Positions 26,196 to 34,595 of a stretch of DNA of 39,337 bases are shown piece by piece. The notes beneath the pieces were generated by a model that was not told the DNA's origin, searched no databases, and saw only the letters and a program-made list of their open reading frames with translations. The stretch's first letter is position 1. Each line of letters starts with the position of its first letter. Made by a program: the position numbers and the translations under genes. Source of the stretch: Planctomycetota bacterium (GTDB taxonomy: Bacteria > Planctomycetota > B129-G9 > JAJDCN01); assembly GCA_029260815.1 (NCBI GenBank), contig JAJDCN010000144.1, positions 1 through 39,337 of the forward strand, written 5' to 3'.

Positions 26196-26271
<76 letters not shown>

Positions 26272-26364
26272 CTGCGCACGAAAAAACGGGCCGAAGGCGA
26301 AGGCTTGCGAAAGACCCGTCTCTCGCAGCAGCTTCCAAACTCAGATTTCAATGTAAAGAATCTT

Positions 26365-28587
26365 ATGCGTAAAATTATCGGTATCGCCCTAATCCTGTCT
26401 GCTCTGGCACTGACCGTGTGGGACTCCGTCGCATTCTCCCGCGATCCCAAACCCGTTGCACCTCCAGGTTTGCAGCAGACGCCGGCCCAAGCCGCGCCCA
26501 TCCCCATCATCCGGCTCACCGGCGAGGTGGACTTCTTCATGGTCCAAAAGGCCACCCGCCTTCTGCGGCAAGCCGCCAAAGCAGCCCCGCCCTTTGTGGT
26601 CCTGGATCTGGACGTGACCGGCGGGCAACTCGAACCGACCCTGAAGATCCTGGCAGAGCTCAAGAACCTGCCAAAAGAAAGCCCCCCAATCGCCTTTGTG
26701 AACCATCAAGCGACCGGCTACGGCCTGTTGATTGCCCTGACCTGCCAGCGGATCCTGGCCACCGACCAGGCGGTGCTTGGGCGTTGTCCGCCCTTGGCGT
26801 ACGATGCCAAAGCGACCAAGAGTGAAAACAGCGGGTTCCGCCTGTTCCTGATGGAGAAGCTTGAGGTTCTGTGTAAAAAAGGCGGTTACGATCCCGAACT
26901 GGCCAAGGCGATGGTCGACCGATCCATGGTGGTCCTTCGGAAGGAAGGTGGGCTGGAAGTGCAGCCGACGCGCCAGGAAGAGCCGAATGCGCGGCACACT
27001 CCTGTGGTGGCTGCCAAGCCGCCCGCAAACGATCCAGGAGTCGTAGCGGACCAAGAGACGCTCCTGGAACTCACCGGAGAACAGATCCAAGGCGCCGGAT
27101 TTACGGGTCCATTGCTTAAAGATCGCGGCGATGTCGCCCAAGCGCTCGGACAGCCGGAAAGCAAACTGATCACGTTGTCCCACAATATTTTGGGCCGAGC
27201 CGGCGCCAACCAAAAGGTCGCGGTCATCGACGTAGAAGGAACGGTCGATTACGGCTTGGCCAAATATGTGGAGCGTGCGCTCGTCCGTGCAAAAGATCAA
27301 GGCGCGACTGCGATTATCTTCCGGATGAGCACCTGGGGCGGCTCCGTCGGGGCTGGCCTGGACATTCAAAAGGACATGCTTGAGACAGATGCGGTCACGC
27401 TCTCCTACGTGGAAGACAAAGCGATCTCCGCCGGAGCCCTGACCGGACTGGCCAGCGATCATATCATCATGCGCATGAGTTCAACCCTGGGAGACTGCGA
27501 GCCGATCTACCAAACCTCGGAGGGGATTCAAACGGCGCCCGAGAAAATTCAAACCGTTCTGCGCGAACGATTCCGAACCAATGCCCAGAATCGCGAAGGT
27601 CAAGGAGTCAAATTTCCGGTGCTCTTGGCAGAAGCAATGGTGACCAAGGAGATGCAGGTTCATCGGATCCTAACGCCCACCGGCATTCACTACAAAACCA
27701 CCGAGGAGCTGGAAAAAGAATCTAAAGAGTCTGTGGTGATTTACGACGACACCATTCTAACGGAAAAGGGCAAGCTGCCCACCTTTAACGCCACCGAGGC
27801 CTATCGGCTGGGATTCGCCACCTATGTGGCCAAAGACTTCGACGACTTTCTGGCCCGCTACGAGATCCCGCAAGCCAACGTCACGCACATCGAGATCACC
27901 TGGTCGGAGGAAATGGTCCGGTTCCTCAATTCGCCGACGATCACCGGGATTCTGTTCATGGTCGGGTTGGTGGCCTTGTGGACTGAGTTCAAAGTCCCCG
28001 GATTCGGTCTGCCGGGGATCGTCGGGCTGTTGTGCTTTGCGGTCCTGTTTACCAGCAAGTACATGGTGGACCTGGCCGACGCGATCGAGATCGTCCTGTT
28101 CGTCATTGGGGTAATCTTGCTGACATTGGAGATCTTTGTGATTCCCGGATTCGGTATCGCAGGGGTCTCCGGATTGTTGCTCATCGTGGCGTCCTTGATT
28201 CTGTCCATGCAGTCCTTTGTAATTCCCACGGAGCAGTGGCAGGTCTTTGAGCTGAAAGCCAACGCCTTGGTTCTAGCGATTAGTTTTCTGTGCGCTCTGG
28301 TCCTCTTCCTGATCCTGATTCGATTCCTGCCGAAGACGCCCATTTTCAACCAACTGGTCCTGGCCACAGCGCAAACTTCCGAGGGCGGGTTTACCGCGGC
28401 CGTCGCCGAAGAAGTCTCCCTTGTAGGTCGCGTCGGTGTGGTCATTACATCCCTGCGCCCTGCCGGCAAAGCGGAATTTGACGGCAAGCCCTTTACGGTC
28501 ACGGCAGAGGGCGACTTCATCGAAAAGGGAACCCAGGTCAAAGTGATCAAGACCGAAGGCAACCGGATATTGGTAACGAGGGCATAG
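26365..28587 (+). CDS. nfeD: Long NfeD protein with two ClpP/SppA-like domains
   Basis: This 740-aa membrane protease-like partner of SPFH proteins has an N-terminal signal/anchor (4-20) and two crotonase-fold domains. The first (about 45-190) has NHQATGYGLLIA with Thr-Gly where the nucleophile Ser-Gly should be, so it is probably inactive. The second (about 283-435) has KAISAGALTGLA with nucleophile Ser355 and a well-placed Lys394. Then come five to six membrane segments (about 515-640) and an NfeD OB-fold (from GRVGVVITSLRP). Typical long NfeD proteins have one protease domain. The start is ATG 26365; the open frame to 26227 begins inside the tRNA gene. It heads nfeD-nfeD-floA, a membrane-microdomain operon. 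Confidence 0.9.
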   Translation: MRKIIGIALILSALALTVWDSVAFSRDPKPVAPPGLQQTPAQAAPIPIIRLTGEVDFFMVQKATRLLRQAAKAAPPFVVLDLDVTGGQLEPTLKILAELKNLPKESPPIAFVNHQATGYGLLIALTCQRILATDQAVLGRCPPLAYDAKATKSENSGFRLFLMEKLEVLCKKGGYDPELAKAMVDRSMVVLRKEGGLEVQPTRQEEPNARHTPVVAAKPPANDPGVVADQETLLELTGEQIQGAGFTGPLLKDRGDVAQALGQPESKLITLSHNILGRAGANQKVAVIDVEGTVDYGLAKYVERALVRAKDQGATAIIFRMSTWGGSVGAGLDIQKDMLETDAVTLSYVEDKAISAGALTGLASDHIIMRMSSTLGDCEPIYQTSEGIQTAPEKIQTVLRERFRTNAQNREGQGVKFPVLLAEAMVTKEMQVHRILTPTGIHYKTTEELEKESKESVVIYDDTILTEKGKLPTFNATEAYRLGFATYVAKDFDDFLARYEIPQANVTHIEITWSEEMVRFLNSPTITGILFMVGLVALWTEFKVPGFGLPGIVGLLCFAVLFTSKYMVDLADAIEIVLFVIGVILLTLEIFVIPGFGIAGVSGLLLIVASLILSMQSFVIPTEQWQVFELKANALVLAISFLCALVLFLILIRFLPKTPIFNQLVLATAQTSEGGFTAAVAEEVSLVGRVGVVITSLRPAGKAEFDGKPFTVTAEGDFIEKGTQVKVIKTEGNRILVTRA

Positions 28588-28588
28588 G

Positions 28589-29080
28589 ATGGGAATCGGA
28601 ACGATTATTGCGGTCTTTGCCTTCGGCTTGGCGCTGGTCTTGTGCGAGGTCTTTGTTCCCGGCGGGCTCATCGGAGCCGTGGGCATGGTCCTGATCGGAA
28701 CCAGTATTTACTTCAGCTTCGACGGCGGTTGGCCGATCCTGGGCGCGGTGTTGTCGGCCTTGACGGTCATCGCGGTCCCGGTCGTGATTATCAAAGGCCT
28801 GTCGCGCCTGTCGCTGAAAACCGCGCAAACCAAAGCGGGCGGCTTTTCCTCCAGCGAGGAGAACATCGAAGGCCTGCTCGGCAAACACGGGGTGACCCTG
28901 AGCGCCCTGCGGCCGACAGGCATGGCCCGGATCGACGATCGAAAACTCAGTGTTGTAACCCGCGGTGAAATGTTATACGCTCATACAAAGATTGAGGTCG
29001 TGGAAGTCGAAGGCAACCGTGTCGTCGTCCGCGCGGTACAAAGCCGAAAACCACTCGCCTCTGACACTTCAGACAAATGA
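28589..29080 (+). CDS. Short NfeD-type membrane protein
   Basis: This 163-aa protein has two N-terminal membrane segments ([21 protein letters not shown] and a second near 45-70) and a C-terminal OB-fold ([20 protein letters not shown] onward). It corresponds to the membrane and OB part of NfeD without the protease domain. It starts one base after the stop of the long NfeD gene, so coupling is likely. Short NfeD proteins are thought to bind and tune SPFH/flotillin oligomers; the neighbouring FloA gene fits that view. The product ends in a hydrophilic ASDTSDK tail. Confidence 0.88.
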
Positions 29081-29108
29081 AGAAAACACGGAACAAGGAG
29101 TAAGTTTC

Positions 29109-30161
29109 ATGAATCCTCTGGCCATCCCAACCAGGCCCGTAGTACTGGCAGCGTCGCTTGACCCTGCCGCGATCGTCATCGGGATCGCAGTTCTTCTGGC
29201 CATCGTCGTCTTCTTTATCATCATAAATTTCGGCGCTTTGTGGCTGCGAGCCTTCGCCTCGGGCGCCCGCATCAGCTTTTTCCAGCTGGTCGCCATGCGG
29301 TTACGGAAGGTCAACCCCAGTGTCATCATCAACGCGAAGATTATGGCGGTCAAGTCGGGCATCGACATTTCCGCGAATCAGTTGGAAGCGCACTACCTGG
29401 CCCGTGGCAACGTACCCAACGTCATTCGAGCCCTTATCGCTGCCAGCCGCGCCGACATCCATCTTGATTTTGCGCGGGCCGCGGCGATCGACCTGGCCGG
29501 CCGCGATGTGCTCGACGCGGTGCAAACATCGGTCAACCCGAAAGTCATCGACTGCCCCGACCCGGGCAAAGGCAAGACGCTCATCGCCGCAGTGGCCATG
29601 GACGGCATCGAGGTCAAAGTTCGAGCTCGGGTAACCGTGCGGGCCAATCTCGACCGTCTGGTCGGCGGCGCCACCGAAGAGACGATCATCGCCCGTGTGG
29701 GCGAGGGCATCGTCACGACCATCGGCTCGTCCCAGACCCACAAGAAGGTATTGGAGAACCCCGACAGCATCTCGCGGGTCGTGTTGGAGAAGGGATTGGA
29801 CGCGGGCACTGCGTTTGAAATCCTCTCCATCGACATCGCCGACGTGGACGTGGGCAACAACATCGGAGCGCGCCTCCAGGCCGACCAGGCCGAAGCAGAC
29901 AAGCGGGTCGCCCAGGCCAAGGCCGAAGAGCGCCGGGCGATGGCCGTGGCCCGGGAGCAGGAGATGCAAGCCATGGTTCGGGAGAACCGCGCCAAGGTCG
30001 TACTGGCCGAGGCGGAGATCCCCCTGGCGATTTCCGAGTCCTTCCGTTCGGGCAACCTGGGCATCATGGATTACTACCGCCTGCGCAATATCCAGGCGGA
30101 TACCAGTATGCGCGACTCAATTTCCAAGTCCGACGGCGGCCGTCCGGAAACGGCCGACTAG
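29109..30161 (+). CDS. floA: Flotillin-like protein FloA (SPFH domain)
   Basis: This 350-aa membrane scaffold protein is expected to form microdomains and organise membrane complexes. After a short N-terminus comes one hydrophobic hairpin (17-45, [20 protein letters not shown]), then the UPF0365/FloA signature [20 protein letters not shown]-type repeats ([20 protein letters not shown]), SPFH residues [21 protein letters not shown] and a C-terminal coiled coil of EA/AEA repeats ([20 protein letters not shown]). ATG 29109 is preceded by AAGGAG eight bases away. The adjacent NfeD genes are the classical flotillin partners. Confidence 0.95.
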
Positions 30162-31186: not shown

Positions 31187-31558
31187 ATGAGTAACAAGGG
31201 GAAGTCCGAACCGTTTGATGTTAGCAAGGCGATCGTTTTGTTCCGGCAGGTGGTCAATCTGGAGGCAGCGCTCAAAGCGCTTCCGCCCAGCCAAACGGAG
31301 AAGTTTTACGACCAAACCACTACCGCTTACTGGGGCCTACGACAAAACGTCCTGGACCTGCTGTGCCAGCACGAAGAATTGTGCGAATTGGTTTCCATCG
31401 CGCCGCACGATTCAAACGCAACAGAACCGGTGATTCAAGGACCCGCACTGTTCACCGGACTGGCAATCCTTAAGGGCGCGCTGGAGAGCGTCGTCCTGAG
31501 CCAGGGGACCGAGCACGAGCAACGGATTGTCGGGTTCACGCCGCCGACCGGAGAATAA
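31187..31558 (+). CDS. Conserved-looking small protein of unknown function
   Basis: This 123-aa soluble protein has no signal or membrane segment. Predicted helices cover SKAIVLFRQVVNLEAALKAL and LRQNVLDLLCQHEELCEL, with two Cys residues in the second. I recognise no family. A GAGGAA ribosome binding site lies just before the ATG, and base composition is like its neighbours, so it is probably real. Its stop is directly followed by the ATG of the HDAC-like lipoprotein gene (TAA-ATG), so the two are co-translated. A functional link with that enzyme is the best guess. Confidence 0.6.
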   Translation: MSNKGKSEPFDVSKAIVLFRQVVNLEAALKALPPSQTEKFYDQTTTAYWGLRQNVLDLLCQHEELCELVSIAPHDSNATEPVIQGPALFTGLAILKGALESVVLSQGTEHEQRIVGFTPPTGE

Positions 31559-32605
31559 ATGCGGTTTGCCCGAGGCGCAGTCTGCCTTGCTCTCATTCTT
31601 CTGGCCAGCTGCACCCAAACAGGCTTCTCTCCCGACACGGCGCGGACCACTCTGGTCTATTCGCCAAAGCATGAAATCGCTCAAGTCGTTCCAGCGGGAT
31701 TCCTCACTTCCTATGACATCCACAAGGGATTGAAAATCTATAAAACGTTGATGGCGTCCAGCGGGCTTGGCCCAGACGACTTCATCGAGCCCGCGCCGAT
31801 TACCGACGAGCAATTGCTCTTGGCCCACACAGCTGATTACGTAAAGACAACCAGGACCACGGGCAACTTGGCGCGTTTCTTCGAGTATGTACCTACGGGC
31901 TTGGAGCGATTGAGTCCGGCCATTGCCCAACCGCTGATCGTGGACCCGCTGCGCCGAGCCACCGGTGGAACGCTCTATGCGTGTCGCGCCGCCCTCACCG
32001 GCGGCCTGGCGATCAATTTGGGTGGCGGCTATCATCATGCCCAAGCCGACCGGGGGCGAGGCTTCTGCATGTTCGCCGACACCGCCGTCGCGATCAAAGC
32101 CCTCCAGACCGAAGGGAGCATCCGGCGCGTGCTGATCGTCGACCTGGACCTGCACCAGGGCAACAGCAACGCGGAGATCTTTGCCGGAGACGATACAGTC
32201 TTTACCTTTTCGGTCCACGGCAGGGGCCTATACCCTTTTTGGAAGGCCACCAGTGATTTGGACGTCACATTCGAGCGAGGCATCAGCGACGATGATTATC
32301 TGAAGATCGTCCGTCACCACCTTCCCGGATTGATCGAACGCACGAACCCCGACCTGATCGTTTATATCGCCGGGGTCGATCTCCATCGAGACGACGACCA
32401 TCAGTTCACCCAAGTCACCGACGCTGGCATCCTCGCGCGGGACCTGTACGTGGTACAAACCGCGCTGGCCCAGAACCGTCCGGTCGCTATGGTCCTTGCC
32501 GGCGGCTATAGCCGGACCAGTTGGCGGTTGCACCTTGCCTCCATCTTGGAGCTTCTGGAACGTTATCCGCTTATAGACGGCAAAATCTCACTCATCACAA
32601 AGTGA
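31559..32605 (+). CDS. Histone-deacetylase-family zinc enzyme with lipoprotein signal peptide
   Basis: This 348-aa protein of the arginase/HDAC fold (class IV-like) would hydrolyse acyl-amine or related amide bonds. Active-site residues are intact: tandem His159-His160 in GGGYHHAQADRG, zinc ligands Asp197 and His199 in DLDLHQGN, third ligand Asp274 in GVDLHRDD, and the catalytic Tyr317 in AGGYS. Unusually, residues 1-18 form a signal peptide with a good lipobox (LLASC, Cys18). It should be exported and lipid-anchored, whereas bacterial HDAC relatives are normally cytosolic. The ATG follows the 123-aa gene directly; CGGAG lies seven bases upstream. Its natural substrate is unknown: polyamine, N-acyl sugar or protein lysine are possible. 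Confidence 0.88.
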   Translation: MRFARGAVCLALILLASCTQTGFSPDTARTTLVYSPKHEIAQVVPAGFLTSYDIHKGLKIYKTLMASSGLGPDDFIEPAPITDEQLLLAHTADYVKTTRTTGNLARFFEYVPTGLERLSPAIAQPLIVDPLRRATGGTLYACRAALTGGLAINLGGGYHHAQADRGRGFCMFADTAVAIKALQTEGSIRRVLIVDLDLHQGNSNAEIFAGDDTVFTFSVHGRGLYPFWKATSDLDVTFERGISDDDYLKIVRHHLPGLIERTNPDLIVYIAGVDLHRDDDHQFTQVTDAGILARDLYVVQTALAQNRPVAMVLAGGYSRTSWRLHLASILELLERYPLIDGKISLITK

Positions 32606-32636: not shown

Positions 32637-32659
32637 CGCACAAAGATGTGTGATTTTTT
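32637..32659 (+). terminator. Probable intrinsic terminator after the HDAC-like gene
   Basis: CGCACA (32637-32642), loop AAGA and TGTGTG (32647-32652) form six pairs including one G-U, followed by A and six Ts. Confidence 0.5.
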
Positions 32660-32724: not shown

Positions 32725-32752
32725 TTGACATGGTTATTTTTCTCCCTATAAT
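32725..32752 (+). promoter_or_regulatory. Consensus promoter for the sulfatase-fold gene
   Basis: TTGACA (32725-32730), a 16-base spacer and TATAAT (32747-32752), both hexamers perfect. A likely transcription start is near 32759. The surrounding 150 bases are markedly AT-rich. Confidence 0.85.
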
Positions 32753-32786: not shown

Positions 32787-34595
32787 ATGTTTGGTTCTTT
32801 CGTCCATGCAAGCTCGACTTCTCGCACGTGTTTCCGGCGGTTCGCACTTCTTTTCCTGGGATTGGCACTTCTACCGACGGTTCAATGCTCCAAGGGCGAG
32901 CAACAAGCGGATCAACCGATCCTGATTCTAATTTCTCTCGATACGGTTCGAGCCAGCGCCCTGTCCTGTTATGGAAACGAGCGGCTGACGACACCAAACC
33001 TGGACCAACTCTCGAAGGAAGGCGCACGGTTTACGACAGCCTATTCCAACATCGGCTACACACCCAGTTCACACGCCTCGATGTTTTCGGGTCTTTATCC
33101 CAACCGGCACAGCGTCGACACGGCCAACAAGTTCTTTGAAGACGTCCCGCTCCTTGCGGAAATCCTGCAAACAAACGGATTCTTGACCGCCGCTGCGGTC
33201 GTTTCGCCGCCTATGCAGGCGGAATACGGATTGGGTCGCGGGTTCGACGAGTATCACACCAATGTCACGCCAAATGCCCGGCTCGAGGTAATCCAACGGA
33301 CAATTCAAGAGGGCGTGGCGCAAAAACGCGGCTCCTTCGTGTTCCTGCACTATATGGATGCCCACTACAATAACACTCCGACCCTTTATCGCGCCCCTCC
33401 GCCCTTTCGCGATCAATTTAGCAAATCACTCGACGGAGCGCTGGTCTGGAAAAGCACTCAGAAAAATTATGCCCGTGCAATCCAACGGCGATCCATGATT
33501 GGCGACTCGTGGTCACCGAGAGAGAACGAATATCTCCGCGCGCGGTACGAAGAATGTGTGGCTTATTTGGACTTCGAGGTTGGTCGCGTGATCGAAGCCT
33601 TGAAGGATATGGGCATTTATGAGCGGGCGACATTGGTCGTAACTTCCGATCATGGAGAGTGCATTGGTAGGCATCAACGATATGGACACAGCTCTGTGTG
33701 GGAAGATGTCACTCGCGTGCCATTGATCATCAAACCACCCCAAAAAAAGCAGACAAGCCCCTTGGAAGTCGAGGGAATCGCGGAGCTCGTCGACTTGTTT
33801 CCCACGCTGCTCGACGCGGGTCAGGTTATTTATCCGATGGAGGGACTGGACGGCAAGAGCCTCTGGCCCTGCGCACAAGGCCAAGTCGCCGTTGCCCCGA
33901 AAAACATGGCATTCGGCAATATCTACCTCCATCAGGCGTTCCTGCGCAGAGGGCGATACAAGCTCGTACGAACCGCGATACCCATGGACGGACAGCCCGG
34001 TTTGGACCGGTTGTTCGACTTGGAAACCGATCCACACGAAAATACCGACTTGTTGTCGAAGCAACCGGTGGTAGCTCTTGAATTGCAAACCCTTCTCGAT
34101 CTGCAGTTGGTTCGCTCGAACCGCCCGTTGATGCTGATGATTACCGGTGACGCGACGATGCATTCATACAAGGTCACCCTCACAACCGAAGGACGGTTTC
34201 GAATCGAGAATCTGATACAGAACTCCTACGCCTTCGATTTTGCCGTTATTGAAGACAAGCGCCTGGTCATCGAAGACGAAATGGATTTTATCGGCCGATG
34301 GTTCCTTTTCGATTCGATGCCGGTTTCCGCACGGGTCACGGTCCATGTTGAGGTTGATGGCGTCCCCATGCCGTCGAGAAACATTTACTGCGGCAACAAA
34401 CTGGCAACTCAAGACGGAGAATTCACATTTAAGTGTGACGATCCAACGCTGGCGGGTCCTCTGCCGCGGGGGTTCCGCCAGAACCTTACCAAAGAGCCCG
34501 GGCTGATCATACTTCGAACCACGACCGCGCCCTCCAAGCGATACGCTATCCAGCCGGATGCGCGCGAGAAGATGAAAAACCTGGGCTATCTCTGA
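32787..34595 (+). CDS. Sulfatase / alkaline-phosphatase-superfamily hydrolase, exported
   Basis: This 602-aa protein starts at ATG 32787, seven bases after AGGAGG. An in-frame ATG at 32730 overlaps the promoter and is not used. An N-terminal hydrophobic signal (about 18-33) suggests export; the following VQC is a weak lipobox. Fold motifs are LISLDTVRASALSCYG (metal Asp52), GYTPSSHASMFSGLYP (nucleophile region, Thr92) and VVTSDHGECIGRHQRYGH (metal DH). The usual Cys/Ser-x-Pro-x-Arg sulfatase signature is absent; Thr occupies the nucleophile place, so formylglycine chemistry is unlikely. Phosphodiesterase- or phosphoglycan-type activity is therefore as likely as sulfatase. A C-terminal beta-rich domain lies in about 430-600. 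It ends 39 bases before a convergent gene. Confidence 0.86.
   Translation: MFGSFVHASSTSRTCFRRFALLFLGLALLPTVQCSKGEQQADQPILILISLDTVRASALSCYGNERLTTPNLDQLSKEGARFTTAYSNIGYTPSSHASMFSGLYPNRHSVDTANKFFEDVPLLAEILQTNGFLTAAAVVSPPMQAEYGLGRGFDEYHTNVTPNARLEVIQRTIQEGVAQKRGSFVFLHYMDAHYNNTPTLYRAPPPFRDQFSKSLDGALVWKSTQKNYARAIQRRSMIGDSWSPRENEYLRARYEECVAYLDFEVGRVIEALKDMGIYERATLVVTSDHGECIGRHQRYGHSSVWEDVTRVPLIIKPPQKKQTSPLEVEGIAELVDLFPTLLDAGQVIYPMEGLDGKSLWPCAQGQVAVAPKNMAFGNIYLHQAFLRRGRYKLVRTAIPMDGQPGLDRLFDLETDPHENTDLLSKQPVVALELQTLLDLQLVRSNRPLMLMITGDATMHSYKVTLTTEGRFRIENLIQNSYAFDFAVIEDKRLVIEDEMDFIGRWFLFDSMPVSARVTVHVEVDGVPMPSRNIYCGNKLATQDGEFTFKCDDPTLAGPLPRGFRQNLTKEPGLIILRTTTAPSKRYAIQPDAREKMKNLGYL

What the first reader, a model, noticed from the sequence alone, without database searches (positions are those of the whole stretch)
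31559..32605. Histone-deacetylase homologue predicted to be an exported lipoprotein
All zinc and catalytic residues of the HDAC fold are present (His159-His160, Asp197, His199, Asp274, Tyr317), yet the protein begins with a signal peptide ending in the lipobox LLASC. Bacterial HDAC relatives act on cytosolic acetoin, polyamine or lysine substrates; one on the periplasmic or outer-membrane face would need another substrate, perhaps an acylated amino sugar or peptide. It is coupled to an unknown 123-aa gene and lies just upstream of a sulfatase-fold gene that also encodes a secreted enzyme.
Basis: partly seen in the sequence, partly recalled or inferred. Interest (0 to 1): 0.68.

Follow-up and report, generated by a model that had tools for sequence, protein, structure and literature searches.

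The report
Membrane-anchored HDAC11-like enzyme outside the cytoplasm
This planctomycete gene encodes an enzyme of the histone-deacetylase (HDAC11) type that carries an export-and-anchor signal, and distant relatives in three bacterial phyla carry one too, so this chemistry, known so far from inside cells, very probably also works on the outer side of bacterial membranes.

Summary
ORF 31559-32605 is an intact HDAC-fold protein with all zinc and catalytic residues. The only possible start codon gives a lipoprotein signal peptide (Cys18, LLASC) ahead of a complete domain.

On its own, such a lipobox has about a 2% chance. The relatives make it convincing. A scan of named genomes put Calditrichota and Planctomycetota proteins on top, with a Verrucomicrobiota one lower; 18 of 198 genomes of one planctomycete class also carry the type. 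In 24 of 24 exported-type proteins the domain follows a hydrophobic signal and a Cys; ten have a strict lipobox. The closest cytosolic relatives start directly at the domain.

By signature residues, tree and predicted fold, the family belongs with class IV (HDAC11 clade B) fatty-acyl-lysine deacylases. The two nearest solved structures hold C12 and C10 fatty acids. One exported relative is fused to a lipase-like domain among lipid genes; three others lie near PBP4-type peptidases.

Most likely it removes fatty-acyl groups from amines on the outer face of the membrane (export likely, substrate inferred). The sulfatase link is weak: a terminator-like hairpin and a perfect promoter separate the genes. 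The 123-aa partner is an orphan. I found no report of exported bacterial HDACs in the papers searched.

The parts
31559..32605 (+). HDAC-fold gene, 348 aa, predicted exported lipoprotein of the class IV (HDAC11) type
   Evidence: PF00850 2e-54; AlphaFold model pLDDT 91; nearest folds 9gz5 and 9gky
31559..31609 (+). signal peptide, residues 1-17 (MRFARGAVCLALILLAS)
   Evidence: only possible start; hydrophobic 7-16; PS51257-type rule met
31598..31612 (+). lipobox LLASC, lipidation Cys18
   Evidence: sequence; a Cys follows the hydrophobic segment in all members of the exported clade
31646..32563 (+). HDAC catalytic domain, about residues 30-335
   Evidence: homologue alignments
31883..31885 (+). 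Glu109, equivalent of HDAC11 clade B Glu94 (substrate backbone contact in L2)
   Evidence: 23 of 23 exported members have Glu; 12 of 142 others; meaning from PMC13325672
31946..31948 (+). Pro130, equivalent of human HDAC11 Pro113 (foot-pocket end; Arg in clade A)
   Evidence: PMC13325672
32030..32038 (+). Tyr158 foot-pocket gatekeeper and catalytic His159-His160
32147..32155 (+). zinc ligands Asp197 and His199
   Evidence: invariant in 45 sequences
32378..32380 (+). zinc ligand Asp274
32507..32509 (+). catalytic Tyr317 (GGY)
31550..31553 (+). Shine-Dalgarno-like GGAG for the HDAC gene, inside the end of the upstream ORF (stop TAA abuts ATG)
   Evidence: sequence
31187..31558 (+). 123-aa orphan ORF, predicted small helical bundle, no signal peptide seen, probably co-transcribed with the HDAC gene
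   Evidence: codon-position GC; AGGA 3 nt before its ATG; model pLDDT 77; no homologues
32637..32652 (+). terminator-like hairpin followed by ATTTTTTC, closing the two-gene unit
32725..32752 (+). TTGACA-N16-TATAAT promoter-like site of the downstream gene (12 of 12 matches)
32787..34595 (+). sulfatase-fold gene (start ATG32787 with AGGAGG), separate unit, itself with an N-terminal hydrophobic segment and Cys
   Evidence: PF00884 5e-37; sequence

Best explanation
The gene encodes a zinc-dependent amidohydrolase of the class IV (HDAC11, clade B) type. It is exported by the Sec pathway and anchored to the outer side of the inner membrane, or to the outer membrane, through lipidated Cys18. It belongs to an exported branch of HDACs, undescribed as far as I could find, present in Planctomycetota, Calditrichota and Verrucomicrobiota. 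The zinc and Tyr317 polarise the amide carbonyl, His159/His160 activate water, and the acyl group is released into a foot pocket behind Tyr158. The most likely substrate is a medium- or long-chain fatty acyl amide on an amine at the membrane surface: an N-epsilon-acyl-lysine of an envelope protein, or an N-acylated amino lipid or lipopeptide. Shown by computation: the domain, catalytic residues, predicted signal peptide, similarity to the exported group and HDAC11-type signatures. Inferred: actual lipidation, the membrane face, the fatty-acyl preference and the substrate.
For: Signal peptide and Cys in all 24 exported-type members against none in the closest cytosolic relatives. Four exported members are the top named hits (E 2e-76 to 5e-61; the next is 5e-58; the Verrucomicrobia member ranks lower at 1e-55) although the scan's patterns did not use the signal. 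18 of 198 genomes of one planctomycete class carry the type besides the query genome. Holding all exported members, window included, as one clade gives a tree 0.36 log units better than the free search (AU p 0.61). Clade B signatures: Glu94 in 23/23, Pro/Ala/Ser and never Arg at the foot-pocket position in 23/23, aromatic gatekeeper in 22/23 (signatures from PMC13325672). Nearest solved folds are L. interrogans HDAC11 with dodecenoic acid and V. cholerae HdaH with decanoic acid. All clade B enzymes assayed are deacylases, most preferring C10-C18 (PMC13325672). L086: exported HDAC fused to a pancreatic-lipase-like domain, next to an AMP-binding enzyme, a GDSL lipase and a CDP-alcohol phosphatidyltransferase.
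Against: The lipid context rests on one genome; neighbours are otherwise not conserved. Only 10 of 24 members fit the strict lipobox rule, so some may be signal-anchored instead. The window protein is a long branch (1.2-1.3 changes per column), its join to the exported clade is not significantly supported, and its L1 loop (TSYD for HPFD, two residues shorter) and pocket lining (His38, Gly57) differ from the rest, so its acyl preference may differ. Clade B enzymes near the base prefer short acyl chains (PMC13325672). No experiment.
Confidence: 0.58

Rival explanations
1. Exported peptidoglycan or glycan amidase: the enzyme hydrolyses an amide in the cell wall, such as an N-acetyl group or the N-epsilon-linked D-Ala-DAP/Lys cross-link, rather than a fatty acyl amide.
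For: Three relatives lie beside or near an S13 (PBP4-type) D-Ala-D-Ala carboxypeptidase; in L245 the two genes overlap by 4 bp. The amide in a DAP cross-link resembles an N-epsilon-acyl-lysine. Clade B enzymes near the base accept short acyl chains.
Against: Only 3 of about 20 neighbourhoods; a PpiC foldase and lipid genes occur in others. The narrow tunnel of HDACs fits an extended aliphatic amine better than a sugar N-acetyl (general knowledge). No such neighbour was seen near the window gene.
Confidence: 0.17
2. The N-terminal segment is an uncleaved anchor and the domain faces the cytoplasm, or the start is a coincidental lipobox; the enzyme is an ordinary cytosolic lysine deacylase.
For: A lipobox alone has about a 2% chance; 14 of 24 members miss the strict rule, and many have positive charges after the hydrophobic segment.
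Against: The same architecture recurs in 24 proteins across three phyla that are only about 40% identical to the window protein, with a Cys shortly after the segment. In two genomes the next gene, a PpiC foldase, carries nearly the same signal peptide. The window's N-terminus has its charges before the segment (MRFAR) and few after it.
Confidence: 0.12
3. Extracytoplasmic deacetylase of small N-acyl molecules taken up or released by the cell (polyamines, N-acyl amino acids, quorum signals), serving scavenging.
For: Bacterial cluster 4 HDACs deacetylate polyamines (PMC11532494). The altered L1 and pocket of the window protein could fit another substrate.
Against: The polyamine enzymes are a different cluster of bacterial deacylases (PMC11532494), whereas this family has the class IV signatures, including the Glu tied to peptidic substrates.
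Confidence: 0.13

Closest known systems
Class IV HDAC / HDAC11 clade B, e.g. Leptospira interrogans HDAC11 (PDB 9gz5, 9rjd) and human HDAC11
   Same: Fold (TM 0.86 normalised by target), zinc and catalytic residues, Glu94 as in human HDAC11, aromatic gatekeeper, no Arg at the foot-pocket end
   Different: Known members are described as cytosolic, nuclear or organellar (PMC13325672); this one has a lipoprotein signal. Its L1 reads TSYD where HDAC11 has HPFD (L. interrogans reads HVFP).
Vibrio cholerae HdaH (cluster 5b; PDB 9gkv, 9gky), a de-decanoylase
   Same: Second nearest fold; same GGYHH gatekeeper motif; fatty acid held in the foot pocket
   Different: Arg at the foot-pocket end position; no export signal is described in PMC11532494
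HDAC11 clade A, e.g. Chlamydomonas HDAC11-1 (PDB 9rje)
   Same: Best single-sequence PDB hit; same fold and catalysis
   Different: The window lacks the Arg, Thr and Gly signatures of clade A and falls on the other side of a 100-supported branch
Legionella LphD/Smh1 (cluster 3 HDACs secreted into host cells)
   Same: An HDAC acting outside the producing cytoplasm
   Different: Reported to leave by a type IV secretion system and to act on host histones (PMC11532494); another cluster, no Sec or lipoprotein signal described

Membership tests
HDAC superfamily (PF00850) | Pfam match above the curated cut-off | tested here: met
   185 bits against 27.9
HDAC superfamily (PF00850) | Zn ligands Asp-His-Asp, His-His pair, Tyr | tested here: met
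   D197, H199, D274, H159, H160, Y317
HDAC superfamily (PF00850) | Arginase/deacetylase fold | tested here: met
   model pLDDT 91; TM up to 0.88 to HDAC structures
HDAC11 clade B (class IV) | Glu at human position 94 | tested here: met
   Glu109; 23 of 23 exported members
HDAC11 clade B (class IV) | Aromatic foot-pocket gatekeeper (Phe/Tyr at human 141) | tested here: met
   Tyr158
HDAC11 clade B (class IV) | No Arg at human position 113 (foot-pocket end) | tested here: met
   Pro130
HDAC11 clade B (class IV) | HPFD motif in loop L1 (consensus) | tested here: not met
   TSYD in the window; most exported relatives have HPFD or HSFD. The assayed clade B enzyme of L. interrogans also lacks it (HVFP), so it is a consensus and not a strict mark; the window is called a relative of clade B, not a strict member.
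HDAC11 clade B (class IV) | Tree position with clade B enzymes | tested here: inconclusive
   In one 100-supported branch with cytosolic HPFD relatives, away from 9rje clade A; human HDAC11 not included, and 9gz5 (partial) falls in the HVFP group
HDAC11 clade B (class IV) | Fatty-acyl-lysine deacylase activity | not testable with these tools
   needs enzyme
HDAC11 clade A | Thr/Ser gatekeeper, Gly at 94, Arg at foot-pocket end | tested here: not met
   Tyr, Glu, Pro
Bacterial lipoproteins | Charged n-region, hydrophobic h-region, lipobox [LVI][ASTVI][GAS]C near residues 15-35 | tested here: met
   LASC, Cys18
Bacterial lipoproteins | Cys retained among orthologues | tested here: met
   a Cys after the hydrophobic segment in 24 of 24 exported members, strict lipobox in 10
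Bacterial lipoproteins | Lgt/LspA processing and lipid attachment | not testable with these tools
   needs labelling or mass spectrometry
Acetylpolyamine amidohydrolases (cluster 4) | Long L2 polyamine-specificity loop and dimer | not tested
   no model of a dimer was made

The most novel reading that the evidence does not exclude
HDAC chemistry has an extracytoplasmic branch: a lipoprotein clade of HDAC11-type enzymes in Planctomycetota, Calditrichota and Verrucomicrobiota removes fatty acyl groups from amines in the cell envelope. This would imply that reversible N-acylation of envelope proteins or amino lipids exists outside the cytoplasm.
Probability: 0.38. Interest if true: 0.8.

Novelty: new variant of a known kind. 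Interest (0 to 1): 0.62.

Why it matters
Apart from enzymes injected into host cells, bacterial HDAC relatives are described as cytosolic, and the natural substrates of class IV enzymes in bacteria are unknown. A conserved, membrane-anchored, exported clade narrows the substrate search to the cell envelope and makes the question testable with one purified domain. If it removes fatty acyl groups there, acylation in the envelope would be a reversible modification.

Tried and rejected
A first genome-contig scan with the single protein found nothing; the alignment-based scan was needed. Own order and class searches were too small: the order holds only this genome, the class four. An operon or function link to the sulfatase was rejected (promoter-like site and hairpin; no sulfatase noticed beside relatives). 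A conserved neighbourhood was not found: UvrC lies divergently upstream in 6 related genomes, an S13 peptidase near 3, PpiC next to 2. The 123-aa partner: no convincing homologue in 392 phylum genomes (best E 0.009, with a stop), none in 31 genomes of another class or in PLSDB plasmids, no Pfam match and no meaningful PDB sequence match. Its single-sequence model resembles the mycobacterial proteasome activator Bpa (TM 0.61/0.67) but E is 0.38, and no Pup ligase was found in the genome, so this is not pursued. Chance as the sole source of the lipobox was rejected because of the clade. Viral contigs: three hits (best E 2e-41), not followed further. The file of the whole genome was not available. 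No paper on exported, secreted or lipoprotein bacterial HDACs was found.

Full report
What is in the sequence. ORF 31559-32605 (+) encodes 348 aa matching Hist_deacetyl PF00850 with E = 2e-54. The start is unambiguous: no ATG, GTG or TTG lies between codon 1 and the domain, the next ATG is codon 65, and ATG31559 abuts the TAA of the upstream ORF with GGAG five bases before it. Residues 1-18 (MRFARGAVCLALILLASC) satisfy the PS51257-type lipoprotein rule with Cys18. The rule alone is met by 1.6% of shuffles and 2.0% of ATG ORFs in the held DNA, so taken alone it is suggestive, not conclusive.

Test against relatives. It is the only HDAC found in its genome, an 89%-complete assembly. In 392 genomes of the phylum, 245 have some HDAC match, but the closest ones examined start directly at the domain. 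A scan of named genomes with a homologue alignment returned five exported-type proteins among its 80 loci: Calditrichaceae (L085), Planctomycetota (L086), Planctomycetales (L087) and Phycisphaerae (L088) on top with E from 2e-76 to 5e-61, and Verrucomicrobia (L102) lower at 1e-55. The remaining hits begin at 5e-58. All five have an N-terminal signal peptide; four have a lipobox (LITAC, IFGC, AAGC, LQGC), the fifth a Sec type I signal. The signal was not part of the conserved patterns used for the scan, so this is independent evidence.

Extent of the clade. Searching with the exported alignment (A2) showed that the window lies in the same phylum as L087, since the same genomes come back. In the class of L087, 18 of 198 genomes besides the query genome carry the type; the 17 other than G393 (L086) were fetched. 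One further verrucomicrobial genome has it. In 24 of 24 exported-type proteins a hydrophobic segment is followed by a Cys before the domain, and 10 fit the strict lipobox rule (the script misplaced L235, which was read by hand). Many share a linker C-x-P-x-SFRAVK-x-PR-x-G before the domain and a C-terminal ...YTK; the window keeps only the Cys and ends ...ITK. In L238/L239 the next gene, a PpiC-type foldase, carries nearly the same signal peptide.

Which HDAC. In a tree of 63 proteins, exported and cytosolic HPFD-type relatives form one 100-supported branch apart from clade A and the HVFP group. In a careful tree, holding all exported members together, window included, gives a slightly better likelihood than the free search (AU p = 0.61). 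One exported clade is therefore compatible with the data, but the window's join is not significantly supported and it is a long branch. Signature residues published for HDAC11 (PMC13325672) were counted. Exported: Glu94 equivalent 23/23, no Arg at the foot-pocket end 23/23, aromatic gatekeeper 22/23. Other relatives: Arg at the foot-pocket end 105/142, Thr gatekeeper 92/142. So the exported clade is of the clade B type. The window departs in L1 (TSYD instead of HPFD, two residues shorter), and His38 and Gly57 stand where relatives mostly have Tyr. The AlphaFold model (pLDDT 91) is closest to L. interrogans HDAC11 with cis-5-dodecenoic acid and V. cholerae HdaH with decanoic acid.

How it probably works. 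The standard HDAC mechanism should apply (established for the superfamily, not tested here). The protein would sit on the outer side of a membrane by its lipidated Cys18, with an acyl tunnel and foot pocket of the fatty-acyl type. All clade B enzymes assayed are deacylases, most preferring C10-C18, with short-chain preference near the base (PMC13325672). The strongest context clue is L086: an exported HDAC fused to a pancreatic-lipase-like domain (PF00151 3.7e-6, just under the curated cut-off; PDB 2pvs 7e-7), with an AMP-binding enzyme, a GDSL lipase and a CDP-alcohol phosphatidyltransferase on the same strand. Against it, three relatives lie near S13 D-Ala-D-Ala carboxypeptidases, which keeps a peptidoglycan substrate alive. 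The substrate is inference.

Surroundings in the window. The HDAC gene follows a 123-aa orphan ORF with normal codon-position GC, no convincing homologue and a predicted helical fold. A tRNA-Leu with a terminator-like hairpin lies upstream. A hairpin with T-run closes the unit at 32637-32652. The sulfatase-fold gene then starts from its own perfect promoter-like site, with ATG32787 as the sensible start, since the first ATG of that frame lies between the -35 and -10 elements.

Known or new. The survey of bacterial classical deacylases (PMC11532494) does not contain the words signal peptide, signal sequence, periplasm or lipoprotein. The class IV study reports targeting signals in eukaryotic members (PMC13325672). 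Literature searches for exported or lipoprotein HDACs returned nothing relevant. Only open-access papers could be searched. I rate it a new variant of a known kind.

Noticed in passing
L086:1805-3814: HDAC domain fused to a pancreatic-lipase-like domain behind a Sec signal peptide, inside a same-strand run of lipid genes (AMP-binding ligase, GDSL lipase, CDP-alcohol phosphatidyltransferase).
   Followed up: partly
31187-31558: 123-aa orphan ORF whose single-sequence model resembles the mycobacterial proteasome activator Bpa (5iet, TM 0.61/0.67, E 0.38); no Pup ligase found in the genome.
   Followed up: partly
32787-34595: Sulfatase-fold protein with YTPSSHAS where FGly sulfatases have C-x-P-S-R, so probably a Thr-nucleophile phosphodiesterase or transferase type; its signal ends LLPTVQC, a near-lipobox.
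   Followed up: no
32725-32752: Perfect TTGACA-N16-TATAAT promoter-like site (12 of 12 matches) in a planctomycete.
   Followed up: no
L238, L239: HDAC gene followed by a PpiC-type foldase gene with nearly the same N-terminal signal peptide, as if the signal had been duplicated in tandem.
   Followed up: partly
L244, L245, L236: Exported HDAC next to or within 1.6 kb of an S13 D-Ala-D-Ala carboxypeptidase gene; in L245 the genes overlap by 4 bp.
   Followed up: partly
L102:625-1722 and L247:2-1081: Exported relatives in which the first catalytic His is replaced (GGYLH, GGFQH), possibly inactive or altered enzymes.
   Followed up: no
L097:2938-3876 (upstream part of the ORF): A separate clade B HDAC of an unclassified bacterium has a long N-terminal extension with one hydrophobic segment, possibly a signal anchor.
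   Followed up: no
26227-30161: NfeD-like membrane protease genes (by eye) followed by a flotillin FloA gene (PF12127) upstream of the HDAC region.
   Followed up: no
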